A DNA stretch of 64,000 nucleotides from Branchiostoma lanceolatum. Its lineage: Eukaryota; Chordata; Leptocardii; Amphioxiformes; Branchiostomatidae. The stretch is taken from positions 24,375,925-24,439,924 of the forward strand of contig NC_089725.1 in assembly GCF_035083965.1 (NCBI RefSeq), read 5' to 3'. Below the pieces are notes generated by a model. The model was not told where the DNA came from, ran no database searches, and worked only from the letters and a program-made list of their open reading frames with translations. The number at the start of each line of letters is the position of its first letter. Position 1 is the first letter of the stretch. Shown piece by piece: positions 25,647-64,000 of the stretch. Made by a program: the position numbers and the translations under genes.

Positions 25647-28600
25647 TCATGTACATTGGCAGGCATTCCCACACCTCTGCAGGTTGCTCCACATCTTCAT
25701 CAGCTGTGTGGGCTGCAGCTCAGGGGAAGAGTACATCTCTGTAGTACAGCCTTCCTCACATTGCCAGGAGTGGTCCTGGGATAAAGAGACATGGGATATT
25801 GTTTGTTGGGTTCTCCACATTGGTTGCAATCATTACCTGCAATCATCAACCATGCTATCAGTATCAAAAGACAAGAAGTATGAATATTATAGAATTATAA
25901 GATTATCTTATAAATCAAAGAGAAAGGTATCTGGATAACATACACATATGAGATTCGGTCCGAGTGCAGCCAGCCAGATCCCCAATGAGACATCTTCTCC
26001 CTGAAGAAAATAGTTTTTCAGAATCTAAGATTTGTACTAAAAAAACACCTCTGTTGCATGTCATAAGGATGTGAAAAAACAGACTTTCAGAAGGAAAGAT
26101 CTACACAAGGGCTGCTTTTCTTCACCTGATATGGCCTAAGCTCGTGTGCATTCTTGGCTAACCAGGAGACAAGGTCAGCTGACAGCATGTTGCCTGCTCC
26201 ACAGGCAAAGGCAGGGTAGACAGGGCTAGGGTAGTCCTGCTCCGCCCACTTGCCATGATGCTCTACAGCCCAGCCACTACGAAACCTGAGGGCAAATGGC
26301 AAAAATTATAGCTAGTTTATAATTTTTTTTAGATAGCAAACAGTACAGGAATCCCACAGGCTGTGGCTAGGGGAATCCTTGTGTTTTAAGAGTGGTACAT
26401 GACCGTACATCTTACAATTTATGCCCAGCTTTGAAATTAAGGTAATGTCAAAATCACTTGGTTTTCCAAATGTGAATCATAAGGAGGACAAGCAGAGGGA
26501 TGGTCACTGGTCAGGATATTTGCCATTTTCAATATGTTACATAGAAGGTGAGACAATTAAACTTACCTGCTCCACCATACTCTGCTTTTTTCACGTAGTT
26601 TAAGAGTTTCAATCCCCTGTCAGAAATCATACAAATTCACATTTTGTCAGCAATGAAGTACGCCACTTTAGAGCTTTGTAATCAGGTACAAATGGTACTA
26701 AGAAACCGTTGACAAAAAGAGCAACAAATGAAAATGGTGTCATAAGTTATCTTACTCACCGTTGCTATTTTGTCCACATCAATAAAACAGTCATCATCAG
26801 TTTTCAAGGTGAAGTTGAACCTCACATTTTCAGTGACCCTAGAGCAAGAAAGAAATACATGTAGTGCATTTCAATGCAACAATCTGAGCCAATCTACACC
26901 ACAATAGAAACATTGCTCTTCATGAAGTCTGCCAGTAGAATATAACCCTAGATTGGTCAATCACTTGTGACTGAGCAAATCACATTGGTATATACACAAT
27001 GTACATGTACCAGCATAGTAAAATTTCTGCATTCCCTATGAAAGTATCCTACTAGGCTACCACACTCTCCCATTCATCAATTTCATTAAAAACATAATTT
27101 GATAACATTGTGTCATCCATCTCAAAATTCATACACATAAAGGAAGTAACTTTAATGCATCCTTGCCATTTGTAAAACCCCAGTATCTTCCTTGGCAGGT
27201 TTCTGTAGAACTCTTCCTCCTCCACCAGGAGGATGTCCCCGTACCGCTCCACCTCCGTCTCCAGATGCTGCTGCTCTGCACCAAGCTTTCCTGTCCAGTC
27301 TTTGGCACGGAGGTCCTGAGGGGCCTGCTCCAAGAACTCAGGCTCTATATACAGAATACATCACTGACTAAAAACTCTGGGTCAATAACTTGAGAAACTC
27401 TACAACAAGCTGTATTATCCCAAGTCTTAATTTCACTTTACTAAATTGCAATTACCTTAAGATAATAGACTGTTATACTAGCATCAATCGACTTGCTTTT
27501 AGTGACTATAGAAGAGTCATAGAACAAATAATAGTGTAGTAAAACTTTAGTTACTAGTAAGTTGTGAATCTTACCAAAGACTCTGTACATAAATGTAGCT
27601 GCTGTATGCTGCTGGACATCGGTGTGAGGAGGAAGATACCCTGACTCAGGCATGAAGTCAACTGTCTGAAACCATTCAATTCATGTTAAGTCTTATTTTT
27701 ACCAGTACAAGTATCATCATCATCATCATCATTGCCAAACTTTCAGCAGTCACAGACTTTTATACACTTCTACTTTCATTCTTCTTCTTTTTTTCATAAC
27801 AAAATATGCATCAGCCTGTGGATTTACCTGTCCTATGTTGGCCTATAAATATACTAGAAATAATATTGGACATGTCCCCGTGGCACAAGCGGTAACGCAA
27901 CCCCGCTGCTTTGCCATCTGGATCGAATTCCGTGGATCCTAGGGCCGGAGTTCGGTCCAAGGGGTCAACTCCAGCTCGGACATGTTGTAAGGGATTGCAT
28001 TCGTCATTTCAGATGGTGACGTAAAGCCGGCGGCCCTGTGTATGAGGGAGCTTCAGGCATTAGCCTCGAGCGTCAAACCTCTGCATGTAAAAGAACCCAA
28101 CACACTAATCGAGAAGAGTAGGGGTGACCCGGTGTGCTTGGCCAAAAACGCGAGCCGTAGCGAAGCCACATTGCACTACCACTAGCTACCTGGAAAAGCA
28201 TCATGCTTCACCTCAAATGAGGATGCCTTGAAACGAAAAAAAAGGTGTACTTTAACAGAGTATGTTTTATTACCTTTGTGAGTTGAAGTACCCCGCCTTT
28301 GTTGTTAACCTGTAGCTGATCCAGAGGAAATGTCACCAACAACTCAATATCTGCTGCTAGGCTCTCCACAGTTATCGTCCCCTGGAATCCCTGCCATGGT
28401 AGAAGTACTGCAGTTAAGATTAGTGCTTACATAACCAACTATCTCTTTTCAAATTTACAGAGTCTGAGACAAATCTAATGACTAAATAAGACCATCTTGA
28501 CCAAATGCAAAACAAAGAAGGTTTGACAGTGAAAACTGATGAATAGAATCAAAGAGTAAATGGGTATCCCACCTTTGGTAAAACATAATTCTGCACAGCC

Positions 28601-31486: not shown

Positions 31487-34400
31487 ATGAGCATGTTTGC
31501 GGACCGTGAAGCCGTAGCGAACAACATCTTCGCGGCGTTCGAGGCGTTCACGCCGGAGGAACAGAACGTGGTGCTGAGGCAAATCCTGCTGAAATGCCAG
31601 GTAAGGACCGAGCCTTTTTTGGGGAATGTTTACAACAAGGCATACCAATTTAGTGTCCATATAGTGTTACGTGTGTATACACAATAAGTAACATACATCA
31701 CAAGAGACATTCCTACCCTGGCTGTATGAATCTACTCTACACAAAATGTACTGTAAATGCATTTAAGACCGCTGTTATGTAAGATAATGTTTGTGAATTT
31801 AGAAGTAACGCAAAAATGCTCATTCTGTCTTCTGCCTGCCTACCTCCTTGTTTCAACCATGAAGTTAAAACCGCTGCAAACACTCCATTTTCTTGCTGTG
31901 GCAAAATTAGATCACTACGAATTTAAATGCATTTACAGTACACGTACATCACAACCCACTACTACTGGGAGAGAGTGTCATCATCACGGATAGAAATTTC
32001 TGTACCAGACCAAGGACATTATACATAATTTCCTTGACCGCACATACAATAGGTCAACTCAAGATCTACACATAAAATTTGGCAGCTTCTTGTATATCTA
32101 GCATCATGCACTTGGCGTGTAAATCAATATGGACCTTGAGCATTAACGTTCCGGTGACAGATTCATCATCCTTCCTTATAGTGTTACCCACATGTGAGTT
32201 TTGTTGCAGCCCCTGCAGCTGAGGTTTGTGTATGCAGAGCTGAAAACCCTCCTGGCTGTGGACTTTGTGGCCCACCTGCCCCGGGAGCTGACAGAGAGGA
32301 TCTTCTCCTACCTGGACGGAGTGGAGATGTCCCGGGCTGCCTGTGTCAGCAGACTGTGGAGGGAGAAGACTAACAATGAGGGATTATGGTAACTCTTGCA
32401 AACTGTTTTTTTGTGTACAATGCAGTTCCATTTTATTTATAGTCACTGTGTATTATCATAAACTTTTGAGTTGCAGGTTGGTGACTTAAGAATTCCTGAT
32501 AGAATACATGAAAAATGAAAGACTAGGAAAATTCTATAAACGGTAGTATTCTAGCCATTATCTTCTGTGGTTCAACATATACATTTCTCTTTGATGTAGG
32601 CAAAGACTGTGCAAATTAAAGAGGTGGGAACATTTTGGGTTTAATGAGGACCTGTCCCGTGAGGAGTCGTGCAGCAGCCCCACGGCCACCTCCCGAACCT
32701 CCCCGCGCTTCACACCAGTCAACAGTGACGTCATCTCCCTGTCACCACTGTGTCACTGGAAGGACGTGTACATCAGGGCGCATCACCTCAACAAGAACTG
32801 GGCAACAGGGAAGTACACCGTCATGCCTCCACTCAGGGGCCACGAGGGCAGGGTCAACTGTATAGACTGTGATGGTCAGTAGCATTATAAGTATACACCT
32901 CACGTTTCTTTGTTGTGCTTTGTACTGAACTTTTGATTAAGAGGTTTGTTTAGAAAAAAATTTTCATTGCACAGTGAGAATAAGATGCAGTGTTACTTCC
33001 ATTGTAGGTAAGTTACTTGTGAGTGGAGGAGGAGACAACTGTGTTCGGTTGTGGGATCTGGCAACTGGGAAGTGTATCAACCAGCTGGAGGGGCACACAG
33101 ACTCTGTCACTGCTATACGACTAAGGGTAAGGCTGACTGTTAATAGTCCTTATGTTATTGTTACAGATTTTGTCAATAAAATTGTGAAAACAACTTTTAG
33201 TCAGTACTATAATTGGATACATTTGGGCGGAGACCAAATAGTTTGATTAGACGTGCCCGGGAGTACGCGGCCTGGTGCGCCCCGGGCCTCAGTTCCGTCA
33301 AGCGACCACGCGGTGAGGCAGAGTTTTGTACTTGTCCCGCAACAGACTCTGTGTCCCTCGTCCCGACGTCCTCTGCCTTCCAACCTCTGCCTTATAATTA
33401 GTGTGTATATAGTGGTTACAAGGGGAAATATACAACTGAGAAACAATAGCTTGCCTGTGACTACATATAGAATTTCCCTGCATTAGTTTATGGGTAGATA
33501 TTAAACTATTGAATATAGATGATCAGGTTGGTAAATCACTGGTTGGGTTGGTAGTAACTCTTTAGTTGCATTTCAAGAACACACAACATGAAAAAAAGTC
33601 CTTTTATCACCATAAATGTGCTTATCAAAGAGTACTGAAACAAAACAACAACAACAAACACAGTGAAGCTAACTTTTCTCCTTTTCCCCAGAACAACATT
33701 GTAGTGACCAGCTGTGCAGACAGTGTGGTCAGGGTATTTGAGGCGTCCAGCGGTCGGTGTCTGAAAGTCATGCAGGGTCACACATCAGGGGTAGAGCACC
33801 TCTGCTTTGATGGGGCAAACCTTGTCAGTGCTTCAAACGACAGGTACGTATCAACTGGTAAATAATTGTATATGAAGGTTGTAATTTATATCCTCAAGAC
33901 TGAGGAAAATATTTTTGTGGACAACTTATTTTCCAAATTGTCAGGCATTTCTTAACATGTACAGGTGTAAATGTTATTTGAATTAGATAACAATTTGTTT
34001 TAGGGCTGCCATAACCAAGGTTCTTCCTGTGTCCACAGGACAGTGAGAGTCTGGTCATTGTCATCAGGGAAGTGCATCCACAACCTAACAGGGCACACAG
34101 ATGATATTCAGGTATAGAGAAGAATCCATTGATATTAAATTCTTTGAATCCTTTGTGTCTTATTAAGTCAAGATCTACTCTGATATGGAGGTAAAGCTCA
34201 AACTCCTCAAAGTGAGTGAAATATTTCATACCTCCTTTCGTTTCAAACTTTACATACTGTCAAACCTCCTGGAATTGTGGCCATTTTCTGGTGGTCCTTT
34301 AGATTATTTTTCCCATTGACTCAACCCCTAAGGATCCTGTCTATATTGGCCACTATTTTTTCCAAGTGCCTTAAGTGGTCACTGTAAACAGGTTTGACTT

Positions 34401-43600: not shown

Positions 43601-45643
43601 GATTCCTATGTAAGGTTACGCACATGTACAGATACTATTGTATCCCAAGCAGGAATCACAATACACATGCCATCACATGTATTTCAATCCCGCTTTCATC
43701 AACTCATCAGCCCACTTGTGAAATTTCAATGACCCTTTAATCACCATTTCATCCCACCATTTCCTAAACCCTGACGTCTACACAATAATACGTATATCAG
43801 CTTCAAGCGACGTTAACACAATACCCAAATTTCTCACGTGCTTGTCTTTGACTGGCAAGTAATGATATGACGGGCGAGACCGTGAGAGATACAATGTGCA
43901 TGTAGCAAGTCTTGGAATCCCGCCCAGAACTCAGAAGGAAACTGCTGACGTCGTTAGAAAAGGGCACTGAAATTTCCGTGGACTAACTAACTTGCCATCT
44001 TTGATAAGATTTTCCCGGCGATCACAAAGATGTAGTTAACATGGATCAGCAATTCTATTGTCGATGACAGAACAGCAAGCGTGAGGAAATTTGATTTTTA
44101 AGAATCCCGAGCCGAATGTCTTAGTAGGTTACTCAGACTAGACATTGACATTGTCAAGTAATTTCCAACAGATGATGCGAGCACGGTTGCAGGTTTGTAG
44201 CCGACGTCTCTCGATACCCAAGAATGCCAAGAACAGCAGGACAGTTTTACTATGTACGTGGCTGTCTGTTTTCTTATTGATGCCAGTGAACCCAAAATAT
44301 GAAGCATTGCTCGACTCGGCGAGTGACTGTCTATCCGGTGGATCAGGGAAGAGAATCGATCTATTTCCAACAAGCATGCCCTTTTGTACATATCAAGCAG
44401 CCCAAACCCCGTAATATCATGAACTATTATCAAACCCATGGAAGGGTGTGCGCAACTGTCAGTTCACAGAACAGGTATTACCAATTTGATTAAACGTCAT
44501 TGGTATTATACATGGGTTTGGAGAAATAGAAGGATGCGACTAATTCGGTTTACCGTGAGACGCGTTTATGTACGAGCGAGGTAGTCCTCTAGAGCTCTGC
44601 TGGGATCCGCACTAGGGAGGTCTGTGGCTGTATTCTCCAAGCACGGAGGTTTCGGTCGAGAGGGCTAGGAGTTCTCCAGAGAAACGTTAAAAGTCGCAGC
44701 CACTCCTACCCCTCTAGACCAAAACCTCCGTGCTTGGAGATATGAATACAGAGAATGCTGTGACTGTGGCGTTTAGCACTACGGTTTCGTTCCCATATGA
44801 GACGGGAGTGGGACAGACTCAACTTTTTGCAAATTCAAAATCCTGACAAGACCAAAGCGTTCAAATTCAAGCCATATTAAATATTCATTTTAAAAGCACA
44901 ATTTTTTGATGTTATCTAATACATAAAAGTCCTGTAAATAAATGTAAAGGACACTTAAATAAACAAAAAGGTTTGGACCACAAATTAGTTCATTTTACTA
45001 CAACCATAAACCCATCGTTAAAACGTCTTTTTTATGTTTCCTGACTACAATAACAAGAACGCAATCAGAACGCGGTTATTTTTGTAGTGGTCCCAGCAAT
45101 CATACAACCCATCATTTCCATGTGCTGAATATTTTGACCCGTCCCAATAGGACAAAGTCAACTGTCTAGTCCTAACGCCCTGCACTGGCGTTGGGGACGA
45201 CAGCGGGCGAGACCATTAGAAGATTTATGAACTTCCAGGGGGCGGGAAGCTCGTGTTGATAATGAGTAAATAAAACAGCAGCCATTACAGGTCGGGGGTC
45301 CATTCACTGTTGACACCTTTGGGGCAATTTTGCTAATCTTCTCGCCTTTTCGGTTTGGTGCAAATTTCCTGGCCGGATCTGAACTGGAACCGCCAAGGGG
45401 TAATCCGATGTGACAGGAACAAAACACGCTAATTAATCGAGTTGGTGACGAGTGTATTTGTCCCCATTTGTCACGTGCGCACTCCCATTCTTCTCTCGGC
45501 GCCGCCACAAGCGCCTGGGCTTCAGAACAGCGCGGCACACCTCGCAAAGTGGTGCGTGCACTGACTGGGCTGTCGTTAGGGTAACAGGTCCACGCTGTCG
45601 TGAGTTGTCTGGAGCGGCACACGCCTGTTTCGGGACTGAGGAC
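37682..45643. other. Intergenic: F-box/WD40 3' UTR to PKDCC promoter
   Basis: About 8 kb without a supported gene. The F-box/WD40 3' UTR occupies the start; candidate AATAAA signals are at 39449-39454 and 39663-39668. A CpG-rich patch at 41690-41965 carries the 18-mer ACTAGTCTCTACCAGACT also seen at 1507, so it is probably a mobile-element copy. A hairpin lies at 44628-44751. CpG content rises from about 45150 into PKDCC exon 1. Open frames up to 172 codons here (for example 38917-39435 minus and 37795-38280 plus) show no domain or splice context. Confidence 0.55.
44628..44751. mobile_element. Hairpin MITE-like inverted repeat
   Basis: CTGTATTCTCCAAGCACGGA (from 44628) is mirrored by TCCGTGCTTGGAGATATGAA TACAG (ending 44751). 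The fold extends inward through GAGAGGGCTAGGAGT / ACTCCTACCCCTC. The loop is about 29 bases and there is no ORF. Confidence 0.75.
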
Positions 45644-48600
45644 ATGGCGTGCGGTCGCCGACTGCATCTGACTAGGGCCATCACGTTCCTGCTGACGGTA
45701 TTGGGGACCGCGATCGTCGTAAATATCGCCCTGCTGGGCTCCCGTAATGACCGTCGCCTTTTCTCTGACACCCGGCCGGGTGGCGATCAGACCATGCCGG
45801 AGAGGCTTACGGCGCACATCAGGGACCTGCAAAATGAACTGGAGAACAAGAGGAGAGAGATTGCGGAGTACAAGGAGAGTATGGACGTGCTGGTCTCTGC
45901 ACGCAAGCCCGTGGAGCCCAAATTCCGTCGGCTCATGGACGCTAGGCGAGAGAAGCTCCGGGTTGTCAACACGGACGCGCCCGCCGGGGCCAACGGGACG
46001 GTACGACAGGACCCCAGGTATATCGGCTGCAGAGAACTTGAGCACATCAAGGTTACCGGGCCCGCGGGATCTGGGTACACCAAAGTCGTGCAGAAGGGAA
46101 AGTACAACGGAGTGGACGTCGCCATGAAATCTGTGGCGATGTCCGGCCACGACATGAGACTTTGTCTGGACACAGGCATGGACCATCGGGACTGCTCTGC
46201 GCTGGCCAACTACAAAATCGTCAAAGAAGTCGCCCTTTTACAAGCCCTGGCCCATCCCAATATCATCAAGGTACTGGAACCATGTTTTCCCTCAATTTTA
46301 CTGTGGAAAAAATTATTGTGTCGTTCAAAATTGTTAGCGCACTTCTAACCCCAGGACTCTCAACACACTAGGTCGATTATATCGGTGTTAAGTTTCTTCA
46401 ACTTCAGCTCTGTATAGAGGTCTGATATTTTAAATGCAGCACAACATCATTTGAATACTTTTGCCCTTAGCTCTCCTCTGTGCCTACATATAGCAAGTTG
46501 CTTATCCACATATTCCAGTGAGAATGGCTCTGTGCTGATTTGGTGGTAGCCTTGGACCGTGTCTGCATCTGTGTTGACTTTTGTCGTTGTTGTGTTAGAC
46601 AAAACGGTCCTACCCAGTTTATCTTGCACCATATGTACCAAGCCCTCCCGTTTCCCACCTCCAAACCTTGAAATCGTTGGCGAAGGATTATTGCATTTAC
46701 TATGGGTCGGGCATAAGAAAGGAGGGGGGAGATTTGCCTTGAGCTGCCTTCCTTACGTGCTATTGTTTGGAACAACTGGAACGTACAAACACTTTGCAAC
46801 ACAGAGACCCTAGACGAAACCCTAGAATAAGTGTCCATATTTTGTCCCTCGGGTCAAACCCATGGTTTAGAGGCAGAAGTAGGGTTTCCGAATTGTCTTC
46901 GTTTTCTCGGAGGGTGCGAATACTTTCTGCGATAAGTACGCCTTCGATTTCGCAATTGCCCGCAAATCCCCTGCGATGCTCTTGCCGTGTGGTTTTTCAC
47001 AGGAACCGGGGCCCGCGGTGTTGTGTGCCTTTATTTACTCTAACGAGCGAGGCGGGTCTCCGAAATACTTATGCTAATAATATGTGGGACAAAAATGGGT
47101 CGACAGCAAGTGTAAATTATGTCGCAGTTTTGACATACGTGACTCGAGATAAATGCACCTAGAGGGTACTTGATGATTTAACGACATGTATACTAGTATA
47201 TCGCGCCGTGGCGCCTCCCGCTGTCCGATCCTGTGCCACTTATCTCCAGTCGATCAGAAAAGCCGGAGAGAATGGAGCGTGAGATAGGTTTTTACTGGCG
47301 GGCTCTCGTCGTCGGAGAAGCAGAACCCGGGTGACCCTAATTTGGCCCGTCTGACTCTGTTGCATCGAGATGTGAGAGAATGTGCATACTTTGGGGCAGA
47401 GCGTCATCGGAGAGGACCCAATTTCGGATAAGTAATCCATTATAACGCCGACAACACGCGTTGCTAGCCCACTTCTCACCACACTGAGACGTGTTTCCTG
47501 CTCGGAGACGAGACCCAGGCCCAAAATCCTACTCTCTATTTTATCTCCACCTGTCAGGCCTGACCAGACTCCTGTCAAAATCGGGTTTTCAATCTTCTGT
47601 CGATTTCCGCTGTGCGGGAATGGGGCTGTGTAATCCTCTACGGCGCAGAACACCTCATCTTTCAAACCAGGCTTTCCGAAGTGACGGAAGGCTCCCCTAG
47701 GCGATACCTATTACAAACAACAAATCACACTCCATTTGAGGTGCTAGAGGCGGTTTATTTTTACTGCTAATCCCCCATGCCCCACCGTGACACACCAGGT
47801 CTGGTTCTCTCGGTAACATGTAAAACTCTCCTTACAAACGGCGTGATGGATTAGTTGATGCCGATAAAAGTTCACATGTGATCTATGACATTACCACAAT
47901 CATCCAACATATGATTTATCATAAAGAGGAGGGATTTTTTAATGTTCTACATACAAAGTGCTTTTGTTTTCAGAGGAGTTTGTGTTACCGTTAGATAATA
48001 TTTTAGTTATTCCGCCATGTAGATATGGCACTGCAACATTGGTATGATGCCAGCATTGAGGGAAAGGAAATCCACTCTTCAAAGCCCTTGGTTCTCCTGT
48101 GTTTTCATACCCTGTTGATCACAATTTGTCTCTGCTACCAGGCAACATAACAAAATTCCTCCTCATTTCTCATATTTCCTCAACCTTGGCAGTGGCATAC
48201 CTCAGACGACTTGTTTATGTTGTAAAAAGATGAGTGAAGAGTCTTGTTGTGATAGGCAGGAAGCTGATGATAAAACTTGGTCAGAAAATGGGGTTTTGAC
48301 AGCAGAGTCGCTGGAATGAATTCCCTTTAAATTTACACTATCAGAGTGACTCAGATGGTATCTCCATCCTGGGCCAAGTATTTGGCCTCTTTCTCCATGG
48401 GTCAATTGCATGTCACTTGAATCACCTCAGCTGTTGTTGTCAGTGAAGTCTAGTTGTCCCCACACCTATAGTATGTCTGGATAGTCCCAGGTGTCGGGCA
48501 GTCAGGAAAGTCCCTGTCCAATTAGGTGAGAGGGCACATGACTGCAAAACATTCACCTTGAATGTAATATGAATGTTAATGTAAGGATATATTACTAGAC

Positions 48601-51600: not shown

Positions 51601-54396
51601 TGCACAGCAGAGTCAGTTGGGCTGTTCTTGACAATAAAGTAGTCAGTTGGCTTTGACAATTTATGAGAGGGTGATTTTGTTTTATAGAGAAACACATTCT
51701 TCTTGGGTCTATTTACAAGAAACAGATACTTCAAATGATAACAGTGGATGATTGATTTATAGAATATGTTCTTGTATTGTAATATGTACATGATGCATTC
51801 CTACTGCAGGTTGTCCCATCCAAAGACAAGTGGCAAAGATCATTGTTTAGCCATTTATTTTATAGATGTTTGTCATACCATGTAATCACCGTGATTTTGT
51901 CAACAGCTGCTCATTACAGGGACTATATACAGTATTAGTCAGTATAGTTTTAAGAATGTGATTTGCAAAGCAATGACGATTTGTCTCGTGGCTCAGGCTC
52001 TGTGACCCTCATATTTCTCCCCTTTTAGGAATGGGTCATTTCAAAGTTGGTTGTCAACAGATTGGACTCTCTATAGTGGTAAAGTACCTGGTAAACTTGG
52101 TTATGTGATTCCTGAATTTGCCTTTGTTTGTATCCTCCCAGTTGCTAGGTTACTGTTTCCATGGAGGCGAGGATGGCTCTGTCACTTCTATAATGGAGTT
52201 GGGTGGACCTCTGGACATTATCAACCTGCTGCAGGCTTCCTGGGAGGACCGCTTCAGGGTAAGGCTTAACTCTTAATCTTAAAAACTTGGACAGCTTGGT
52301 TTTGAAAACTGTTGATCATGAAATGTTTGCTATGGGTTTATGTTTATGTTTTTCATCACACAGTGAACATGTGCCCTGTCTTGCTACTGTCTTCTTTCAA
52401 CTGCAAGTTTAAAACACTGCCGCCTTTTCCCTCCTACCTCCCTGCAAACGATTTACAGTACATGCATATCCAGTTCAGCTAAAAAGAAAATTTAAAAAAG
52501 AAAGAAAATGGGACTTGATGATTGCTGTCTAGCAATTATACCAATGCAATAAATAGAACATGATTCAGCCTTATTGTATGCAATATACATGTATGTAGTA
52601 AGCAAGTCGTCTCAGATACTGTATCATTTGTGCAGCTAACTTCTTGAGCTAAGAAGTTTGATGGTCAGTGATAGAACTTCTCACCCTTTTCTTCCACAGA
52701 TAAGTCTGGGCCTGGCTCAGCTCTTGGCTCACCTGAACTCCTCGCCCATCGGCCCAGTCGCCCTCCATGACTTCAAGCTGCAGCAGTTTGTGCTTGTCGA
52801 CGGGGAGGTGAAGCTGGCGGACCTGGACGATGCTGACAGTTACGCACCAAAATGTTCCGAAGACTCCGACTGCAAATTGGAATTCCCGGGGACGTCCTTC
52901 CAGCTGTCCTGTTGGCAGGGGAAATGTTCGTCATGGAGCGACAAGAGCAACCTGTACAACGCCTACAGATACTTCTTTGTGTACCTGCTTCCTTTCGAAG
53001 TACCAGAAGCACTGAAGCCACTTGTGGATGAGGCTATGAATAAGACAGGTAGGAGATTGAAACTGCTTAACTCCCATTTCCTGGTGACATTTTTAGCTTT
53101 TTCCCTGCTGCCTAACTCTGTAACTGATAGGGAACTGGATGCCAAATGGCTACTTCAGTATGCTATTATGGTTTTGAAAACTATCAAGGATTAATGCTGG
53201 GAAGCCCAAATAGCTCAAACATTTCCATCCAGTAGAAGGTAAGCACTCTTTCAGACAGGCAAAAGCATGTATCTTCTACCTGAAAAAATTGTGAAATATG
53301 GTATACATTTGCCAATGTTGTAAAATATGATTCACTTGTATGCGTTATATACCAAGAAGTTCTGTGATGTACTCCAAGCTACTCTTCTTTGTAATGGCCA
53401 GTAAAGAAACATTAACTGAGTAAAGAAACGTTAAACAGTATATGATGGATACTTGAACAAATCAATGACTACATCTGCTTCCTTCTGTCTGTAGCTACCC
53501 TGCAGTGGTCCAGTGAGGAGACTGCTGCTCACCTGGAGAGGATCCTGGGCCTGTATCAGAGTGGGGCCTACCTACACAGGGACGGCAAATCAGACATGAC
53601 TGGTGAGTAAAGAAAGATCTTATGGAACTCCTGGTTATGTCAAGAATTCAAAATATACAGGTGTCATGAAAGTCCCTCATCTTTAAGTGTATTACAAATA
53701 CAATGCAATGATATGTTCACATGTCTGAGTGGCTAAAAATGTTTTGCAACTGTATAGTTCTGTCTCACACCCAAACATTCTAAATGTCTACTGTAGTCAA
53801 GATGAAATGTAACTTTATAACAAAGTTGTAGTCTCCAATATGAAATACCAACTTCCATACTTCCCAGGATACAAGAAGGTTCTCCAGTCTGACGTGCCAG
53901 GTGTGGGAGACTTTGACTGTCTGAGGTCGTTGTCCCGGGGAGCGTGTGCAGTGTCCGTGTTCGATGCGCAGGAAGCTGCCAGCATGTGTGACAGTGATGC
54001 TGAATGTAAGGGCTTTGTCCTCACATCCAGGAAGACTTGGATAGGTGAGCTGGGCAGGGTTGCTTTTACATGTGGTTTGAAATCATGACTTTGACTTCAA
54101 TTTTGTAAGTAATTGTCTCTCATCAAGTAGACCTGTAACAAGCTCATGAAAGCACAATATATAACTAACATGATGACTTGAAGTTACACTTTACTTTTTA
54201 TGAATATCTTACAAGTTTGTTCATGAATAACTTTACTGTTAGCATTGATCTTTAATTTCAAGTATCCAGATGCTTAATTTTTTTTTTGTTCCCTTCCTTA
54301 CCAGGCCGTCCAGTGGCATACTTCAAGAATGATGTATCATCTCCAGTGGAAAATTCTGACACAATATTGTACACTAAGATCCTTGCTCCCACATAA
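45644..54396 (+). CDS. PKDCC: PKDCC / vertebrate lonesome kinase (VLK), secreted tyrosine kinase
   Basis: Secretory-pathway protein kinase that phosphorylates extracellular proteins on tyrosine and is needed for skeletal and lung development in mouse. Six exons: 45644-46270, 52142-52258, 52700-53048, 53495-53602, 53868-54044 and 54305-54396, giving 489 aa (human 493). An N-terminal hydrophobic segment (about 9-31, LTRAITFLLTVLGTAIVVNI) acts as signal or anchor. A coiled-coil-like stretch follows (LQNELENKRREIAEYKES). The kinase part has GSGYTKVV (142-149), AMKSV with lysine 162, KEVALLQALAHPNIIK, ELGGPLDIINLLQASWEDRF, HDFKLQQFVLVDGEVK with D272, DLDDA (289-293, the DFG equivalent), and NLYNAYRYFFVYLLPF. 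A cysteine-bearing C-terminus follows. Exon 1 is CpG-rich and intron 1 is 5.9 kb. A poly(A) signal follows at 54738. Confidence 0.96.
46271..52141 (+). other. PKDCC intron 1 (5.9 kb)
   Basis: No exon was found. The first part stays CpG-rich; 47210-47700 is a GC-rich block with several GATA-like (TTATCT, GAGATA) and E-box (CACCTG) matches and could be an enhancer, though this is speculative. A perfect hairpin is at 50220-50291. Open frames within (for example 47240-47665 minus and 49792-50007 plus) have no recognisable domain. Confidence 0.5.
50220..50291. repeat. Perfect 30-bp inverted repeat with 12-base loop
   Basis: Arm 50220-50249 starts CAATGTAATACATTTACTTC. It is exactly complementary to 50262-50291, which starts ACAAATGAAAGAAGTAAATG. 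The loop is ATAAGGGTCTGG. It could be a recent palindromic insertion or a hairpin RNA precursor. It lies in PKDCC intron 1. Confidence 0.9.
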
Positions 54397-55169
54397 TGGG
54401 GAAAGAGTCAGCACTTTTAAAGTTCATGGCCAACTATCCAGACTTGTCATGAAAAACACAGAATGACAACTTTGAAGCTAAACAAAGTGTATTTATTTGT
54501 ATGCAATATCATAAGTTAGCAATGCTTAGTGCAATATACAATGTAATTGTATCAATGGATACAGGCTGTATTTTTTATACTATGTACAGATTCTGAATGC
54601 CCTATGTGAGGCAAATGCAAAGTTTGAAAACTGATCTTCAAATATCTATATTTTGGTTGTAACATTCCAAAACAACATGAATTGTTAACAGTACTAGCAA
54701 TGATAAGATTTTGATACGGATATTGAAAATATGTGTAAATAAACAGTCAATTTAACAGCAAAGTTGTCTAGTTTCCTGTTTTGTCCCATTTTTTCCTGCA
54801 CTTTTTCAGTCTCTGGTGGTAAAAATCTTAGGTGTTCCTGTTTGTCAGTGTGTAAGTTGGTAACAAACCGAAGATAGCTGTAATATAACTATAATTTCTT
54901 CCACTTTTCATATATCGTTTTCAATGCTTGAAAATTTAACAATGCAGTTAAACGGTAACAATAGAAAGTTTAAATGTGAAAACTGGAAATGGCTAAATCT
55001 TGTCAATTTCTTAGCCTTTTGCAAACGATCCAAAACCTCTCAACCTTCTGCTAAACAACAAACATATAATAATACTATATACTGTCACATGGCAATTCTT
55101 AGGGAAATAGTTACAAGTCCAGACAACAATAGGTCTGTAACCTCATCATAGGCAAGTAGAGCCTTCAGC
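54397..55169. other. Convergent PKDCC / MEIOSIN-like 3' region
   Basis: It holds the PKDCC 3' UTR with AATAAA at 54738-54743. On the minus strand the nearest canonical signal after the MEIOSIN-like stop is at 54492-54497 (TTTATT on plus), so the two transcripts may overlap tail to tail. No gene is seen. Confidence 0.5.
54738..54743 (+). terminator. PKDCC poly(A) signal AATAAA
   Basis: A canonical hexamer about 340 bases after the PKDCC stop codon, in an AT-rich tail. Confidence 0.75.
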
Positions 55170-58100
55170 TCATGTAACTTGCAGCTCTACTGCATCCCCT
55201 GATGCATCTGACTGTGTTGTCACTGTTGTACAATTTTCCCTTGATCTACCACCATACCCAGCCACAGGGACACATGCATCCAAAACAATACTTGACACGG
55301 GTGATGCATGAAGCAGTCCAGCAGAATCCGTTGTTGATGCAGAAGATGTTCCTCCAAGAATGCCTGCTAAGTCAAAAACATCATGTAGCAGGGACTTCTG
55401 CACAATGACATTCCTGTTGTTCCGTAGACTGAACTCATAAGCAGCATCTCTGTATCAAAGACAATTTCATGCACTGATTTTGACAGACATAACACAAGGA
55501 ATTAGACAGAATCAACCATTGGCAGATAGCTGTTGTGCAAATGTTTTAAGTTCACGATTGCACTATAGTCACATACTGTACAGTAATGGAAAAACTAGTG
55601 GTTTTAAGTTTGTGGTGAAAACAAAAAAACACTGCAAAAATTTCAAGAATTACAATACAGTCAAACCTGTATTAGCGGTCACCTTTGCATAGCGGCCACC
55701 TGCCCATAGTGGTCACTTTTTGTCGGTCCCTTGGATTTTTCCCATTGACATAAGCATTAAGAATTAGGCTATTGCGGCCACCTGTCCAACGCGGTCGCGG
55801 CCAGACGATTTTCAGTCCCGCGAGTACAGTAACACTGTCGATAACGGTCACGGCGCGCCGGTAGAAGCCGCATCGCCACCGCACGCCGGGTTCAAAATCT
55901 TCATTTTTTCACGCAGTTATCAAATTTATGTGGACTCAACTGGATAGGATGATAATAAAGAAAACCAGAATGTTTTATCTTTGTTAGAAAATCCATGATT
56001 TGACACGAAGTCAGTATAATTTTCTTCACATGGCTTGCGTTTGTACATCGTAGCAAAATTGACCATTTCTTTGCATTTCGACTGGACAAATATTACGGCA
56101 GCTTTTTGGAAAATACAACCCGCACATGTAGCTGATGCGGTAAGTTCGGGAAATGTTTGAATGCTGGCCCAATATCCGTTTTCCCCGGTGCTCAAAGTCA
56201 AAACGTGTTTCACGCGATTTTCAAAATGGCGCTGATAGTCAGCAGCACAAAGGTCAACGGAAGACATTACTGTTTCGGAGGTATAATGCGCTAAATTTAT
56301 TTTGCTACAAAGTATCACTGAGGATAATTACTTTACCAAAAGCTTCAAAAGAAATATGAATAACATTAATATGATGTAAAATTTGGGCTATTGCAATTTT
56401 CTGAAAAGGACAAAGCCATCAAAAGAGCGACCTTCTTCTGAGTACCCTATTAGCATAATGGTAGAAGCTGATAATGACAAGCGGGAAGCGAAACAACAAC
56501 AGACTAAGGAAAACTTTCGCCACGATTTTATGTTTCAAAACGGTCAAAAACGAACAGTAAGTGGCAACTGAGCAACATGTATTTTGTTCTTAACTAACTA
56601 GGTGGCATTTTGCTGCGAAGGACTTTGTTTCATATTAGGATTAAAACTCGTTGGTGACGCGTGTGCCTGCAGCGAAGCAGTCGCGAAGGATCAAGAGTAG
56701 AGTATGGCGATGCTGGTCTGTACAGACATGAAGCCCGAGCAAGCCAAGGATTTTGGAGTTGGCAGATACAATAATTCTTTTTTCAACCCCATAATAGAAG
56801 TAAAAGAACAACAATCGACTTTCTAAAATGTGACTTACCTATGCAATGTTTACATGTGTACTGTACGGTGAATAAATGTATCTCAGTGGGTACTGAAAAT
56901 ATGTGTCACTCGTGGTCAAATAATCGACATTTTCTCCATAGCGGCCACCTGTCCTTAGCGGCCAGTTTTGGCCAGTCCCTTGAGTGACCGGTATAGACAG
57001 GTTTGACTGTACAAAGAAGCTGACTTCCTCATGAAATGCATGGGAACCTGAACCCTGCAATAGATTACAGTTTTGACTCTTCTCCCTCCTAAATGTCTAA
57101 ATTGTGAAACAAAAACAATGATATCTCACTTGTAAGGCTTCCTCTCTGCTGGAGACATGGCAGCCCACTTCCTCCCCATCATGGTGCTGATTTGGGTGGA
57201 AGCATATCCAGAATACCTCCTGAAACAAGGACAGTGTACTCCCAACCATAAGAAACATTCTACCAGACCTGTAGAGCCCCCATGCTACCAAGTATTGAAC
57301 TGCAGCTGTCTTTTCTTGCAGCTAATGGTTAGACAGACTTCAATAAGGTTGACTATATTGCAGGTCCACCACACTACCACCATATTTATGGACTTCCATC
57401 CACATTACTATCCCACAAATAACCAAAATGAAAAACTCACTTTGAGTATGATAAGCTTCTGTCAGCAACATATTGTTGCTCAGTTTCATCAAACTTTGAG
57501 TGGTGCCCCCAGCCCCCCAATAAAGGTGCATAAACGTGACTCACTGTTTCTGCTTCTCTCGAACTATCTTGCAGAACATGATGAATCCGTTCACACACTT
57601 CTTCTTGTTCTTGGCTCTGCCATAGGAGAACCTCCTCCTCCTGGTGCCGGATCCTCTGTCTTCGTCCCTATCTTCAGAAGGCACCTCTTGGTTTGCTTCT
57701 TTGTCTGCCTCGTCACCAGATGTCAGGAACTGACCAGTGAAGCTTCCATCATGCAGGGTGTCCACTGAGGAGTTGGACATGTCAAAAATGCTTTGTTCAT
57801 TCAGATTCTTCCAGATTGGTGGAGTGTAGGTCTTGGAGGGAGCTGCCATGGTAGCAGAGTAGCACGGTGGACAAGAAGATGGGCGGCCGAACGGTGAAAT
57901 TTTGAAGTAATCATCCACAAGTGTCTTGCTGTACGGCATATCTTCTGCCTCAGGGACAACAGAGTCCTTGTCTGGAGGATGTAAATCTGAAGAGCCAAGA
58001 GCTGGTGTCACTGAGTGAGAATCAGTCTTATCAAGATTCATAGGGACTACCTGCTGGGGTGAGGAGCTACGGGGGTCACTGCACAACTTCTCAGGCTGGA

Positions 58101-60709
58101 AGAAGGCAGAAAACCTGTCACTGCTCTCATCGTCGTCGGGGGCATTTGTCTCCATGCTGCTGTTGTCTTCACTACTGAAGAGTGCTCTCCTGGCATGGGG
58201 GAAGGGCACACTCCTATCCAACTTTCTTCCCTTCTCCACCGTCCATCCCAGCTCTCTCCTTGGCGTAGTGTCCTCCAGACATTCAGCACAGCATCTCTTT
58301 GGTTTGGTCTTCCGTCTCGGTCTAGCTTCACCGTGGCTCAGCCATCTCTTCCTCGACTGCTTAGGCGTCGTAATGTTCTCAGTTTGGCGGCAAGGACTTG
58401 CTTCAGACTTTAATGCTTCTCCAGCTAGGGTGTCAGTATGGAAGTCAGCATCTCGGCAACTGGGCTGTACAGCATGTTGGTAATCGGGTCCAGCCATGTT
58501 GCCTGCCATCTGATTGATGTCCCCACTGGTTCCCTCACAAGGATCCTGCTCCAGTTTTGGACTGCAGTACTTGTGAAGGCATCTCCCCTCGATGTGTTTA
58601 GCCAGCATGTGTAAGTCGTAGCTGAGCACTGATGGTGACATGGTGAGGATGGCAGGAGAGACACCCAGCTCCCTGCACACATCCTTCAGACTGACCCTGG
58701 CGGTGCAGGGTTTGATTCCCAGGTCTGTGTAGGCCATTTTCAGTTCCATGTGTAGCCAGTCAATGTACTGGATAGACAGCTGCAACACACGGCACTGAGA
58801 AGGGAAAACATAGCCATAACATACTTGATTGTGCTGTGCAAAAACTTTGGGCTCTTTTCCAATTGTCCTCATTCAAAATATCTAATGAATTTTCAAAAAT
58901 ATTCAAGTCTTTTCTGACATCGTATCATCAGAGAACTGTATGACATATTGGAAAGATATTTCTATAGCATAGTGTTACCGGTAACCTTCTCTCTGCTGCC
59001 TAACCCTGCAACCAATAGGAAATTGGGTACCAAATAGCTACTTCAAAGTGCTAGAGGTTAAGCACCCTACCTTGGTCTGTTTATGTCCATCCTCGGACAC
59101 TGGGAGCAGCCCGGCCATCTCCTGCAGTGCAACCACTGTGCTGCGGTGTCTGTCCCTTTTGGCATATGAAACATATAAAATGCTTGTTAGAGTAGTCTTG
59201 TTAACTCAAACAGAGGCACCATCTTACTACTCTTGTCCCATAATTATTCATGTCCTTGGTGCTGAAATGGGCTGTTCATTGGTTTTGCCACCAGCTGATG
59301 TGTTGTCTTATTTTTCACACTTGCTTGATCCCAACGTGGAATTGAAAATGACCAACACAACAAGCATTTTCTCTATATCCTACAGCCAAAAGCAAGTCTC
59401 TTTTTCCCATGGACAGGCATGTTTCATGTCAGTCTCTTCCTCGAGCTACAGTAGTCTTAAAGGGCAGAGTGGCTCAAAGATATGCAACGGGATTCTCATT
59501 ATGTTACCATGACTGTAAAAAATTGTTGTATACAGGGGACAACTAGAATGTTCAGAGCAGTGTCAAGAAAATGATGTGTGCCTAAGACCTGGCTAACCTC
59601 TCCCTTTGCCTGTGCACTGCTCTTGGAGAAGACGATACCCGCGGATCGTCTGGACCCTCCACACTGGCTATGCTGGACTCACTCTCTACTGACAACTGGA
59701 AAATGGAGGAACAATATACACTGAAACACACTGATACAACTGCTAAATTTTATTTAAATACTGTCAATTTTTGCCAAGTGGAATCAAAGAACACCTCCAT
59801 ATAGCCTTTTAATGAACCATGATGTGATGCTTTAGATGGTTTTAGATCAGATGTGCTTTCCTTAGCTATTTGTATCATCCCAAAGTCCATTGTATTGTAT
59901 TGTATTGTCAAGAGTCCAATTCAGCCAACTATGTTGTATATCAAGTTTACTGCAAGATTGTACAGATGTACAGTTTTGAATATCTAGAGGGAGTAGTTGT
60001 AACCTGTGAGCTGGAGCTGTGACTGGAGCCGGACCAGTCCGAGTCCTGGCGCAGAGGGAAGTTCACCTCCTGCACCAGGTGGTTAATGTCGGCCGTGAAC
60101 CTCTGCTGGGAGCTCTGCAGCATGGTCAGGGGCAGGCAGGTGGCAGCACCGGGGGACAGGCAGCCTATATCCCCCAACTCACCTGGCTTAGGCTGAACAC
60201 AACAGTTCAGGGTGATTCTACAAACAACCTTCATTGACATAAGTACAGCAACTTTTTGTAAGGTCTACTACAGCTATACATGCAAACAAACAAGTTGATT
60301 CAAATCTATTTACCGATGTAACGTTAGTTCACATAAACTCGCGGGGTGATATAAACTCAGGATTTTTAAAAACGGTGTATTTAGGGATATGTGCTAGATG
60401 CAACATCAGTTATAACGCCAGCAATTCAATCCTGACAGACTAACATATTCAGAACACTGTCTGAAAAGCTTCGATAGCCATGATACTGGACCTAAAGTCT
60501 AAATATTCTTTGATGTATTTATCTATTTGCACAAAGAATGGTACTATTTATACCTATTTTACATGAAACTTAAAACAACTACTGAAACAAACATGGAGAA
60601 GAGATAATGCAAGTCTTTGACAAAAAATGACTTCTCTGGGTTTTTTTTTCACCTCATCTTCCATCTTGACTGACCATGATGACCAGGAGTTAAGCCCAGC
60701 AGGGTCCAT
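55170..60709 (-). CDS. MEIOSIN: MEIOSIN/BHMG1-like bHLH and HMG-box transcription factor
   Basis: In mammals MEIOSIN pairs with STRA8 to switch on meiotic genes. Seven exons: 60709-60653, 60192-60004, 59695-59598, 59155-59071, 58794-57545, 57219-57130 and 55449-55170, giving 682 aa with all phases matching. The start is MDPAGLNSWSSWSVKMEDE. A bHLH spans about 108-162: basic/helix 1 RERDRHRSTVVALQEMAGLL, loop PVSEDGHKQTK, helix 2 CRVLQLSIQYIDWLHMEL. A long Ser/Pro and acidic middle follows, with a basic TRRRRFSYGRAKNKKK. An HMG box spans about 540-605: CVNGFIMFCKIVREKQKQ, then YSGYASTQISTMMGRKWAAM, then SPAERKPYKDAAYEFSLR. A bHLH with a C-terminal HMG box is characteristic of MEIOSIN. Exon 4 could instead start at 59149 (two residues fewer). 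Intron 6 holds a pogo-like element. Confidence 0.85.
55658..57009. mobile_element. Non-autonomous pogo/Tigger-like DNA transposon
   Basis: The terminal inverted repeats are CAGTCAAACCTGT (55658-55670) and ACAGGTTTGACTG (56997-57009). They are flanked by TA on both sides (TA target duplication). The ends carry repeated AGCGGYCACCTGTCC-type subterminal motifs, typical of pogo-like ends. Length is 1352 bp. The longest internal frame (55926-56318 minus, 130 codons) has no recognised transposase motif, so it is probably a deletion derivative. It sits in the last MEIOSIN-like intron. Confidence 0.8.
59889..59909. repeat. GTATT pentanucleotide microsatellite
   Basis: About four GTATT units in a MEIOSIN-like intron. 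Confidence 0.8.
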
Positions 60710-61076
60710 CTTTCTCTGACCAGCAGACAGCCCTGATGCATGACAGCAAGGTGAATAGACTAATGTTGGCTAGAATATAGGGCCGGCCAATGGTACAGCC
60801 ATGCTTCTCAGTACTCGCACATTGAATGGTCCAGCTTGGCTGGTTAGATTTGGAGGGACTTGCCCTTGCTTTCCGAGATATTGATGACAATAACGTTATA
60901 GGTAACGTTAACGTTACCGAGAAAAGTTTCCGAGATATTGATGACATTAGGTAACGTTTTTACAGAAAAGTTATTTGCATCCTGTCAAAAGATGGTAGCT
61001 TTCTCTTCCTGGTGCTCAAGCCTCATTGGAAACTATAGTCTAGATAATACATATAATGACATATATGTAAGACTAA

Positions 61077-61144
61077 ATGAGAATTCAAACATGGACTATA
61101 TGAGAATTCAAACACAGACTATATGAGAATTCAAACAAGGACTA
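61077..61144. repeat. Three tandem copies of a 23-bp unit
   Basis: The unit reads ATGAGAATTCAAACA followed by an 8-base tail ending GACTAT. Copies are at 61077-61099, 61100-61122 and 61123-61144, differing at two or three positions. Confidence 0.9.
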
Positions 61145-61730
61145 GTTCTTCCAAATCAAACACGTTTATGCCCCCCTCCCAACAAACAGATCAACAATTA
61201 GAAAATAATTTTTTTTTAAACATAGCTTTTTTTCAATGATTCAAAGCGGCATTTACTGTGGATACTGATTACACCCACACTAATTCCGAAATACACACAT
61301 TAGGAGAAAACTTCACCAGTATACAAAAACCCACTACGCTAGATTTTTTTCCCGCCATTTTTCGGCCAGCCATGTTGGAGGTTCCTCTCACAGAATTGTT
61401 CAAATTTTTCGCTCTCCAACACGCACATAACTAACTAGCTAACACGTGAAGTAACCTCCCACTCAACATACTGACGTTTGAACAGCGAACTTACTTCGTG
61501 AGTGGACCGTCAATCCTTTTGTCTCCTCTTGCAATGAATATTCCACAAGTCGATAACCAATGATGATTCGGAATATTCCATTGTGCTATGAAATGGGTGA
61601 TGTCAGAAATATTACAAGTTAAAGCGTCAACAACAATCAACAACAGAAATAGATAGATACGATAAGAATATACCAGGTATATCTATTAAGACGGATTTTA
61701 CACGTTAAAGTCTACCTGTCTCAAGTTGTC

Positions 61731-61871
61731 ATGGTTTGTAAACGTTGTCCACCAGTGTGCAATGGTTTGCTCTGCTGTAGATCGTCACCCGCGCGAAGTA
61801 GCGGACAATATGTACAGTGTTGTATTTGTAAGGGAGGATATTCTCGTCTTGATCGTAGACCTCCTCGATAA
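61731..61871 (+). CDS. Small cysteine-rich open frame, uncertain
   Basis: An ATG-initiated frame of 46 codons, MVCKRCPPVCNGLLCC... then QYVQCCICKGGY..., with eight cysteines, ending TAA. The CxxC and CC spacing recalls a zinc-binding or disulfide-rich peptide. There is no signal peptide, the region is AT-rich and unannotated, and a longer frame overlaps in another phase. It could be a decayed mobile-element fragment or chance. I do not recognise it. Confidence 0.15.
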   Translation: MVCKRCPPVCNGLLCCRSSPARSSGQYVQCCICKGGYSRLDRRPPR

Positions 61872-63667
61872 AGGCTTATATGGATTGTATAGATGTCTGA
61901 GTTTGACATTTACATCCGAAACGTTATACATGCACAATTGGAAATTGGTATTAGGTGTTGGTTTACCATCTGGTTGTCCTGAAGGTGTAGTTTGTGTTTT
62001 GGTCGCCAGTCGGCGCCCTTGCACGGGGAAGGGAAAAGTCTCGAGCGCCACTTTTTAGTTTTGATTATTGCAAAAGCTGGTGACAAATTGATTTTAAGCT
62101 AGAGTTTTAGACTACCCACACTCTTTTCATTTCAAAGAAGGACTTTCATTATTACCATTTAATGATATTATCCCATCAATGAACTCTTTTAAAAAAATCT
62201 TTATTCAACAGAATAAAAGAACATAAACAAAGACAACTGTATAATATGCTAACATAAGAATAATGAACTCTTTAATTACATTACCTATCAGATATGACGT
62301 TAGAAATTACAATTGGAAAGTGTTGCTACATGCATCTCCCGCATCGATATGAAACAGGCAATTTGTAATGCAAATTTCAATTTCAAACGTCATCGAAGCG
62401 GCTCCATACCTTGTCCTTACGTGAACCCGATCGTTTGAAGCTTTACATCTGTCATACAAACAAAAAAACCGCAAACATTGCTGCACCACGCTTAGCTTCG
62501 GGTCTGTATCTTCATAAATTGTCGTTTTACAGTCAGACTATCAGAGTATGCCTATATATCATTCTCCTATGTAGAGCCGTCCCGTTGGCATTAGTCATTG
62601 TCATCGGGATCGACGGCTTTGCGTACTATATACATGTACGTAGGAGAAGGATGCCTTTGGAGTATGGACCAGTGATGAATTCTAATACATTGCTTTTCTT
62701 TTCTTTTCAATCATTTTTATACGACAGGTATGGTGTTTTTGAGCTTTCATATCGCATTGCACTAAAGGGAGAATTTAGACGCTAGGAGGGTGAGTTGCAG
62801 GGAAGCATTTTCTATTAAAAGATTACCGGCTCCGTGATTCATTTCCACAGCCCTTGAATTTTGTAGAAAACATATATTATGTCTGCAATGGTCACTAGAT
62901 AAATATCATATGGATGAGCCTTCATCTCTTCCCGAAATATAAGTCATGTCAGACTTTAGAAAATAAGAATTGGAAAAGGCACGCGACAGACGTGTCAGAG
63001 GGATGCTAATGTTACAAGGTACCGTATTGTCCACCCACCAACACGCGCATTCTCAAAGATTAATTGGGTACGGGTATAATCACCATTCAGGGTCGGTTTT
63101 CAGGTCTAGGTACTAGGTGGTGATTCAAATCGCAAGAGGTTTTTCCGGTCCACACTCGGACTGTCAGATTTACACACCGCATTGGCATGCTTGACTAGGT
63201 TTTAAGATAACGTGTTCTGAGCCTTGATTCTAAAATCAGTACAGGAATGTATCAGTACAGGAAGTATACAGCGCTAGCCGATGTGAGCCCTTGACAACTG
63301 CTCAATGTTGCAACAGGTGGTTGCCACATGCTAGGGTAAGGTGAAGGCTTGCTGCCTTCATTGTGTACAACTCATGAATCGCTCCAACAATCTACAAAGA
63401 ACGAACAGCGAAAACAACAAGGGCTAAGCGGATAAAGGCTTTGACAGAGTCTTTATGCAACTAAAACACATTTGGTGTATGTGACGCTTTTACACTGCAC
63501 ATGGCGAACGCCCTGTAAATATTTGCCGATCCGCCAGTTGGAAAGGCTTTTTGCTGGAAAACCACATCTTAGAAGTCGGAAGTTCAGACCAGACCGCTAT
63601 TGTGGAAGTATTCATCAGCCAGGTATCTTCAATAATTGATCTGAATGGCGTGTCTAAGCCTTTACAG

Positions 63668-63807
63668 CTGGTGTATACTGCCGCCGAAATGAGGCGATGT
63701 TAGAAAAATTCACAGCCTTTGATGCGGAAGAGACAGACAACCTTCATACAAAGCATATTCGATCAATCTTTGCCAAACTATTGGTCAATCACAGATCACC
63801 GAAAATA
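63668..63807 (+). CDS. Possible internal exon of an unknown gene, uncertain
   Basis: A 140-base open segment is bounded by an acceptor (CCTTTACAG) and a donor (AAAATA|GTAAGT). It would encode GVYCRRNEAMLEKFTAFDAE followed by about 26 more residues, starting in phase 1 and ending in phase 0. The composition looks protein-like, but I recognise no family and found no partner exon. Chance or mobile-element origin is quite possible. Confidence 0.18.
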
Positions 63808-64000
63808 GTAAGTCACATGGCCAGATATTCATGTAGCCTGAATTCAATCAAGCCTCATGTGACCGCTCGCCGCCCTGTAACCGCCTCACAACCCGCGGGG
63901 AGGGGAGAGAAACCCCCGGACAGCTGGAGTTTGCGTTATACAGACTAATATTTATATAATTACAATGAAAACTTTTGGGGGTAAATTATAGGTATCAAAT

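What the first reader, a model, noticed from the sequence alone, without database searches (positions are those of the whole stretch)
55170..60709. MEIOSIN-like meiotic initiator in an apparent invertebrate chordate
Seven minus-strand exons join in phase into a 682-residue protein with an N-terminal bHLH (helix 2 ...SIQYIDWLHMEL) and a C-terminal HMG box (NGFIMFCK...RKWAAMSPAERKPYK). That architecture defines vertebrate MEIOSIN/BHMG1, the STRA8 partner that starts meiosis. If this is amphioxus, the meiotic-entry switch, or at least its DNA-binding half, predates vertebrates.
Basis: partly seen in the sequence, partly recalled or inferred. Interest (0 to 1): 0.85.

Follow-up and report, generated by a model that had tools for sequence, protein, structure and literature searches.

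The report
Likely lancelet MEIOSIN (meiosis-starter) gene
An apparently lancelet-type genome carries an intact gene built like MEIOSIN, the protein that helps start meiosis in mammals, which suggests that this half of the meiotic switch is older than the vertebrates.

Summary
Seven minus-strand exons (60709-55170), all introns GT-AG, join in phase into 682 residues. Pfam finds a bHLH (PF00010, 1.9e-5, aa 107-155) and an HMG box (PF00505, 2.8e-10, aa 541-594), both above curated cut-offs. One 1,250-bp exon holds bHLH helix 2 and the start of the HMG box, so both domains belong to one gene.

The closest alternative, STRA8, was tested and fails: no match to Pfam's STRA8 bHLH model (E<=10, E<=1) and no LxCxE motif. 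No solved bHLH or HMG family stands out. MEIOSIN membership could not be tested against a database sequence. MEIOSIN fragments recalled from memory align well at the HMG box (29 of 65 identical), but that is a lead only. The species is unverified and no whole genome is held.

The pre-vertebrate claim is therefore half old; a lancelet MEIOSIN was not found in the paper searches made. Best reading: a MEIOSIN ortholog, a new member of a known family. Germ-line function is untested.

The parts
60653..60709 (-). exon 1, start codon, aa 1-19 (uncertain; an in-frame ATG in exon 2 is an alternative start)
   Evidence: open frame and phase; GT donor top 3.1% on a consensus score
60004..60192 (-). exon 2, aa 20-82 (uncertain borders)
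   Evidence: AG/GT borders, phase 0; splice scores only top 16-22%
59598..59695 (-). exon 3, aa 83-115, basic region begins
   Evidence: Pfam HLH match starts at aa 107, about 59623
59071..59155 (-). exon 4, aa 115-143, end of basic region, helix 1, loop
   Evidence: the HLH profile match runs through both junctions; acceptor score weak, top 21%
57545..58794 (-). exon 5, aa 144-560: bHLH helix 2, linker of about 385 aa, basic stretch RRRRFSYGRAKNKKK, first 20 residues of the HMG box match
   Evidence: 443-codon open frame, about 5e-7 expected by chance
57130..57219 (-). exon 6, aa 560-590, middle of the HMG box
   Evidence: splice scores top 1.3-1.6%; continues the PF00505 match
55170..55449 (-). 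exon 7, aa 590-682: end of the HMG box, C-terminal tail, TGA
   Evidence: PF00505 match runs to aa 594, about 55437
58759..59623 (-). bHLH domain, aa 107-155, split over exons 3-5
   Evidence: PF00010 1.9e-5 in the whole protein, 3.8e-7 in the isolated domain
55437..57603 (-). HMG box, aa 541-594, split over exons 5-7
   Evidence: PF00505 2.8e-10, PF09011 1.3e-4
54492..54497 (-). possible polyadenylation signal AATAAA
   Evidence: pattern only

Best explanation
The gene is the MEIOSIN (BHMG1) ortholog of an invertebrate chordate, most likely a lancelet. Shown here: an intact gene model whose single protein has a bHLH in its N-terminal part and an HMG box in its C-terminal part, joined by a long linker. 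Inferred: the helix-loop-helix pairs with a partner, most simply the STRA8-like protein reported from B. floridae; the pair enters the nucleus of pre-meiotic germ cells, and the bHLH and HMG box hold it on promoters so that it switches on the meiotic gene programme, as MEIOSIN-STRA8 does in mice.
For: Both domains are above Pfam gathering scores in one protein. One exon carries parts of both. The STRA8 reading fails two tests. No family with a solved structure stands out: best bHLH hit TAL1 E 0.014, and the HMG box hits HMGB, SOX, SMARCE1, HBP1 and capicua at similar levels. [quoted passage not shown] Zebrafish has a meiosin ortholog, expressed in late progenitors preparing for meiosis (PMC12289312, passages), although stra8 was not found there (PMC4870732, passages). 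A B. floridae Stra8 ortholog, the expected partner, was reported (PMC3769385, passages). Lead only, recalled letters: MEIOSIN HMG fragment score 143, 29 of 65 identical, 0 of 2000 shuffles as high, against 66-87 for five other HMG boxes; MEIOSIN bHLH fragment score 59, 21 of 52 columns identical, 0 of 2000 shuffles as high.
Against: No MEIOSIN sequence from a database could be compared. The recalled MEIOSIN letters are unverified and may have been coloured by having read this window. The recalled bHLH fragment scores 59, below TAL1 (72) and TWIST1 (61) against our bHLH (the fragment lacks most of the basic region), so the bHLH does not point to MEIOSIN by itself. The basic region and start of helix 1 resemble STRA8. 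None of the five neighbouring genes identified is a recalled neighbour of human MEIOSIN (FBXO46, SIX5, DMPK). No expression, partner or binding data. Species unproven.
Confidence: 0.78

Rival explanations
1. It is the amphioxus STRA8, or the very gene that the 2013 paper called Stra8, since STRA8 also has a bHLH and a predicted HMG box.
For: Basic region and start of helix 1 resemble mouse STRA8 (recalled letters): PRAVHRQRERDRHRSTVVAL against PRVVRRRLSQARHRATLVGL, score 52, 0 of 2000 shuffles as high. STRA8 has a Phyre2-predicted HMG box (PMC6392498, passages).
Against: No match to Pfam PF23175 bHLH_STRA8 (80-aa bHLH at E<=10; whole protein and 70-aa bHLH at E<=1; HMMER's filters drop most matches above about 0.1), whereas the recalled mouse STRA8 matches it at 9.8e-52. 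No LxCxE motif, which is reported as conserved in vertebrate STRA8 homologs (PMC10600341, passages). BLAST against recalled mouse STRA8 gives 24.6 bits, E about 211 for an 11-million-residue database, far from the 8e-09 reported against human STRA8 for the B. floridae ortholog. The recalled STRA8 has no Pfam HMG match at E<=1, ours has one. The HMG parts do not align above shuffles (471 of 2000 as high).
Confidence: 0.08
2. A bHLH-HMG protein from which both STRA8 and MEIOSIN descend (co-ortholog), present before a duplication on the vertebrate stem.
For: STRA8-like basic region together with a Pfam-detectable HMG box and a MEIOSIN-like lead.
Against: A separate Stra8 ortholog was reported for B. 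floridae, which would put the split earlier.
Confidence: 0.07
3. A lancelet-specific bHLH-HMG fusion, or another HMG family member (HBP1, SMARCE1, SOX-like) that gained a bHLH independently.
For: Sequence similarity to any solved family is low; MEIOSIN identity rests on architecture and recalled letters.
Against: The same pair of domains as MEIOSIN (their order in MEIOSIN is recalled); no HMG family scores clearly above the rest.
Confidence: 0.05
4. Mis-joined exons or a decaying pseudogene.
For: Three splice sites score weakly and no transcript is at hand.
Against: No internal stop over 682 codons, all introns GT-AG, domain matches continue across junctions, 443-codon open frame.
Confidence: 0.02

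Closest known systems
MEIOSIN (BHMG1) of vertebrates
   Same: bHLH and HMG box in one protein (PMC9604137, passages, describes these domains); the HMG box agrees with recalled MEIOSIN letters at 29 of 65 (lead)
   Different: host is apparently an invertebrate chordate; function, expression and partner unknown; the rest of the protein could not be compared
STRA8
   Same: similar basic region and helix 1 start (recalled letters); STRA8 too has a bHLH and a predicted HMG box
   Different: no match to PF23175 bHLH_STRA8; no LxCxE; a Pfam-detectable HMG box; has Glu at the E-box-reading position where recalled STRA8 has Ser (alignment)
bHLH factors such as TAL1, TWIST1, MAX
   Same: bHLH fold; H110, E114, R115 and R117 match the Max part of the Max/E2A chimera in the alignment
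   Different: E-values 0.014 or worse; none has an HMG box (recalled)
HMG-box factors (HMGB, SOX, HBP1, SMARCE1, capicua)
   Same: HMG box fold
   Different: best E 3.6e-07 to a two-box SRY/HMGB1 fusion and about 1e-5 to 1e-4 to many families at once; none has a bHLH (recalled)

Membership tests
MEIOSIN (BHMG1) | bHLH domain (N-terminal position recalled) | tested here: met
   PF00010 aa 107-155, 1.9e-5, 24.8 bits against cut-off 20.7
MEIOSIN (BHMG1) | HMG box in the same protein (C-terminal position recalled) | tested here: met
   PF00505 aa 541-594, 2.8e-10, 40.9 bits against cut-off 25.4; exon 5 codes for parts of both domains
MEIOSIN (BHMG1) | sequence closest to vertebrate MEIOSIN in a comparison with real sequences or a tree | tested here: inconclusive
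   only recalled, unverified fragments could be used: HMG 29 of 65 identical (clearly above five other HMG boxes), bHLH 21 of 52 columns (score below TAL1 and TWIST1)
MEIOSIN (BHMG1) | conserved gene neighbourhood | tested here: inconclusive
   none of five neighbours identified is a recalled neighbour of human MEIOSIN; the window is only 64 kb and not every gene in it was named
MEIOSIN (BHMG1) | binds STRA8 | not testable with these tools
   no genome held; a B. floridae Stra8 ortholog is reported in PMC3769385 (passages)
MEIOSIN (BHMG1) | expressed at meiotic onset and required for it | not testable with these tools
   no RNA data
STRA8 | STRA8-type bHLH (PF23175) | tested here: not met
   no match at E<=10 for the bHLH or E<=1 for the whole protein; recalled mouse STRA8 as positive control 9.8e-52
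STRA8 | LxCxE RB-binding motif | tested here: not met
   no match in 682 residues; motif reported as conserved in vertebrate STRA8 (PMC10600341)
STRA8 | predicted HMG box | tested here: met
   an HMG box is present, but unlike that of recalled STRA8 it is Pfam-detectable

The most novel reading that the evidence does not exclude
Lancelets carry both halves of the meiotic switch (STRA8 as reported in 2013, MEIOSIN here), and the lancelet MEIOSIN still has a basic region able to read E-boxes (H110, E114, R115, R117) with a STRA8-like helix 1. The switch would then have begun as an ordinary E-box factor, with STRA8 and MEIOSIN related by an old duplication, and vertebrates later moved to the CNCCTCAG motif and to retinoic-acid control.
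Probability: 0.2. Interest if true: 0.72.

Novelty: new member of a known kind. Interest (0 to 1): 0.52.

Why it matters
MEIOSIN and STRA8 are required for meiotic entry in mice, and loss-of-function variants in both are enriched in human ovarian insufficiency (PMC9941050, abstract and passages). How old this switch is remains open: stra8 was lost in several fish lineages (PMC4870732, passages). An intact MEIOSIN-type gene outside vertebrates, in a lineage from which a Stra8 ortholog has been reported, would date the pair to the chordate ancestor or earlier, and would make its original function testable in an animal that can be bred and edited (recalled).

Tried and rejected
STRA8 identity: rejected on PF23175 and LxCxE. 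Other HMG or bHLH families: no clear best match. Relatives in public contigs: none confirmed in viral contigs (exon 5; HMG box) or genome contigs (HMG box); these hold viruses and prokaryotes, so this says nothing about animals. Synteny: no support. Structure: 98 residues of exon 5 folded without an alignment gave mean pLDDT 44.9, not informative, so no fold search was made. CNCCTCAG and RARE-like patterns occur in the window; none of the listed sites lies between exon 1 and the window end (60710-64000) and one CNCCTCAG lies inside exon 5 (57765); no control was run, so this is not evidence either way. The repeat finder reported no inverted pair of 20 bases or more in intron 6; a direct pattern search then found the 15-bp ends. 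tRNA and Rfam scans of the window were empty.

TAACGTTA occurs 5 times against 0.49 expected; that this is typical of Branchiostoma is recalled only.
Full report
Observation. With borders 60709-60653, 60192-60004, 59695-59598, 59155-59071, 58794-57545, 57219-57130 and 55449-55170 every intron begins GT and ends AG and the frame stays open for 682 residues. The central exon sits in a 443-codon open frame, of which about 5e-7 are expected by chance in 64 kb. On a consensus score with recalled base frequencies, nine of the twelve splice sites are within the top 5% of sites in the span; both sites of exon 2 and the acceptor of exon 4 are only in the top 15-22%. The first 82 residues are the least certain part.

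Domains. Pfam reports HLH at aa 107-155 (1.9e-5) and HMG_box at aa 541-594 (2.8e-10), both above gathering scores; the isolated domains score 3.8e-7 and 1.5e-11. The HMG box is completed only across the 1.68-kb intron 6, which holds an insertion with 15-bp inverted ends.

Which family. STRA8 is the necessary rival, because it too has a bHLH and a Phyre2-predicted HMG box at about aa 216-268 (PMC6392498, passages). Pfam has a STRA8 bHLH model, PF23175. Our bHLH does not match it at E<=10, nor does the whole protein at E<=1; HMMER's filters drop most matches above about 0.1, so the honest bound is no match better than about 0.1. Our protein lacks LxCxE, which is reported as conserved in vertebrate STRA8 (PMC10600341, passages). 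BLAST with recalled STRA8 gives 24.6 bits. Yet the basic region and start of helix 1 do look STRA8-like (10 of 20 identical; 0 of 2000 shuffles as high), a result against a clean MEIOSIN-only reading. The HMG parts of the two do not align above shuffles (471 of 2000 as high).

Against PDB sequences the bHLH has only weak hits (TAL1 0.014, TWIST1 0.062), and the HMG box hits HMGB, SOX, SMARCE1, HBP1 and capicua at similar levels. So no other family with a solved structure claims it. I had no collection with MEIOSIN sequences to search. Fragments of mammalian MEIOSIN that I recall align with the HMG box at 29 of 65 identities (score 143; five other HMG boxes 66-87) and with the bHLH at 21 of 52 columns (score 59; TAL1 72 and TWIST1 61 against our bHLH). 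The recalled pieces match Pfam HMG_box (1.8e-10) and HLH (5.4e-6), so they are protein-like, but they are unverified and may be coloured by reading this window. They count as a lead.

DNA reading. In the alignment with the Max/E2A chimera our basic region has H110, E114, R115 and R117 at positions by which bHLH factors read E-boxes (roles recalled). STRA8 is reported to lack the E-box determinants (PMC7810945, passages), and in mice STRA8 and MEIOSIN share the motif CNCCTCAG (PMC9604137, passages). The protein studied here may therefore read a different site; this is inference, and the basic region of mammalian MEIOSIN was not available for comparison.

Mechanism. By analogy with mouse (PMC9604137 and PMC10600341, passages): MEIOSIN promotes nuclear localisation of STRA8 and together they activate meiotic genes. 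Zebrafish has meiosin, expressed in late progenitors preparing for meiosis (PMC12289312, passages), while no stra8 was found in zebrafish (PMC4870732, passages), so a MEIOSIN may act without STRA8. For this gene only the gene model and the domains are shown; partner, target and germ-cell role are inferred.

Prior work. Rodriguez-Mari et al. 2013 (PMC3769385, passages) report a Stra8 ortholog in B. floridae by reciprocal best hit at 8e-09 against human. No paper in the held library holds both MEIOSIN and amphioxus ('Branchiostoma' and 'lancelet' were not searched together with MEIOSIN). Eleven papers hold BHMG1 (listing only); from titles and abstract openings none concerns an invertebrate gene. 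Of 29 papers with meiosin and vertebrate or invertebrate (28 listed), none has a title or abstract opening about a non-vertebrate MEIOSIN; I saw passages of eight of them and only the listing of the rest. The paper that described MEIOSIN (Ishiguro 2020) is not held. Automatic genome annotations could not be checked and may already carry the name.

Surroundings. Neighbours by Pfam and by eye: POLE2-like (17138-17473 +, PF04042 above its cut-off), amnionless-like (22063-23611 -, one exon above its cut-off, one below), galactosyltransferase-like (26090-27360 -, both pieces below cut-off), F-box (32198 +, above cut-off) with a WD40-like piece (35698 +, below cut-off), and FAM69-like (52640 +, below cut-off). 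The FAM69-like gene lies tail to tail with ours. None supports or excludes orthology. Species: an animal-type genome stretch of about 41.5% GC; lancelet is plausible, not proven.

Verdict. A real, apparently intact bHLH-HMG gene, most likely a MEIOSIN ortholog (0.78), outside vertebrates if the species guess is right. New member of a known kind; interest 0.52, because the age of the switch was already proposed from the STRA8 side and membership still needs a real sequence comparison.

Noticed in passing
55656-57011 (intron 6): A roughly 1.36-kb insertion with perfect 15-bp terminal inverted repeats TACAGTCAAACCTGT, apparently a DNA transposon; a 133-aa frame inside it has no Pfam hit at E<=0.01; a one-mismatch copy of the end lies at 34388.
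   Followed up: partly
22063-23611, minus strand: Amnionless-like exons (PF14828 9.8e-08 above cut-off in one, 0.007 below cut-off in the other); amnionless is the partner of cubilin in vertebrate vitamin B12 uptake (recalled).
   Followed up: partly
52640-54088, plus strand: FAM69/DIPK1-like exons (PF12260 E 1.2e-4, below its cut-off, for 52640-53191; the last exon named by eye), tail to tail with the MEIOSIN-like gene.
   Followed up: partly
45449-46345, plus strand: 299-residue open frame with, by eye, a transmembrane-like and a coiled-coil-like stretch and no Pfam hit at E<=0.01, in the most GC-rich 4 kb of the window.
   Followed up: no
1-64000: TAACGTTA occurs 5 times against 0.49 expected from dinucleotides, a possible species signature.
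   Followed up: partly
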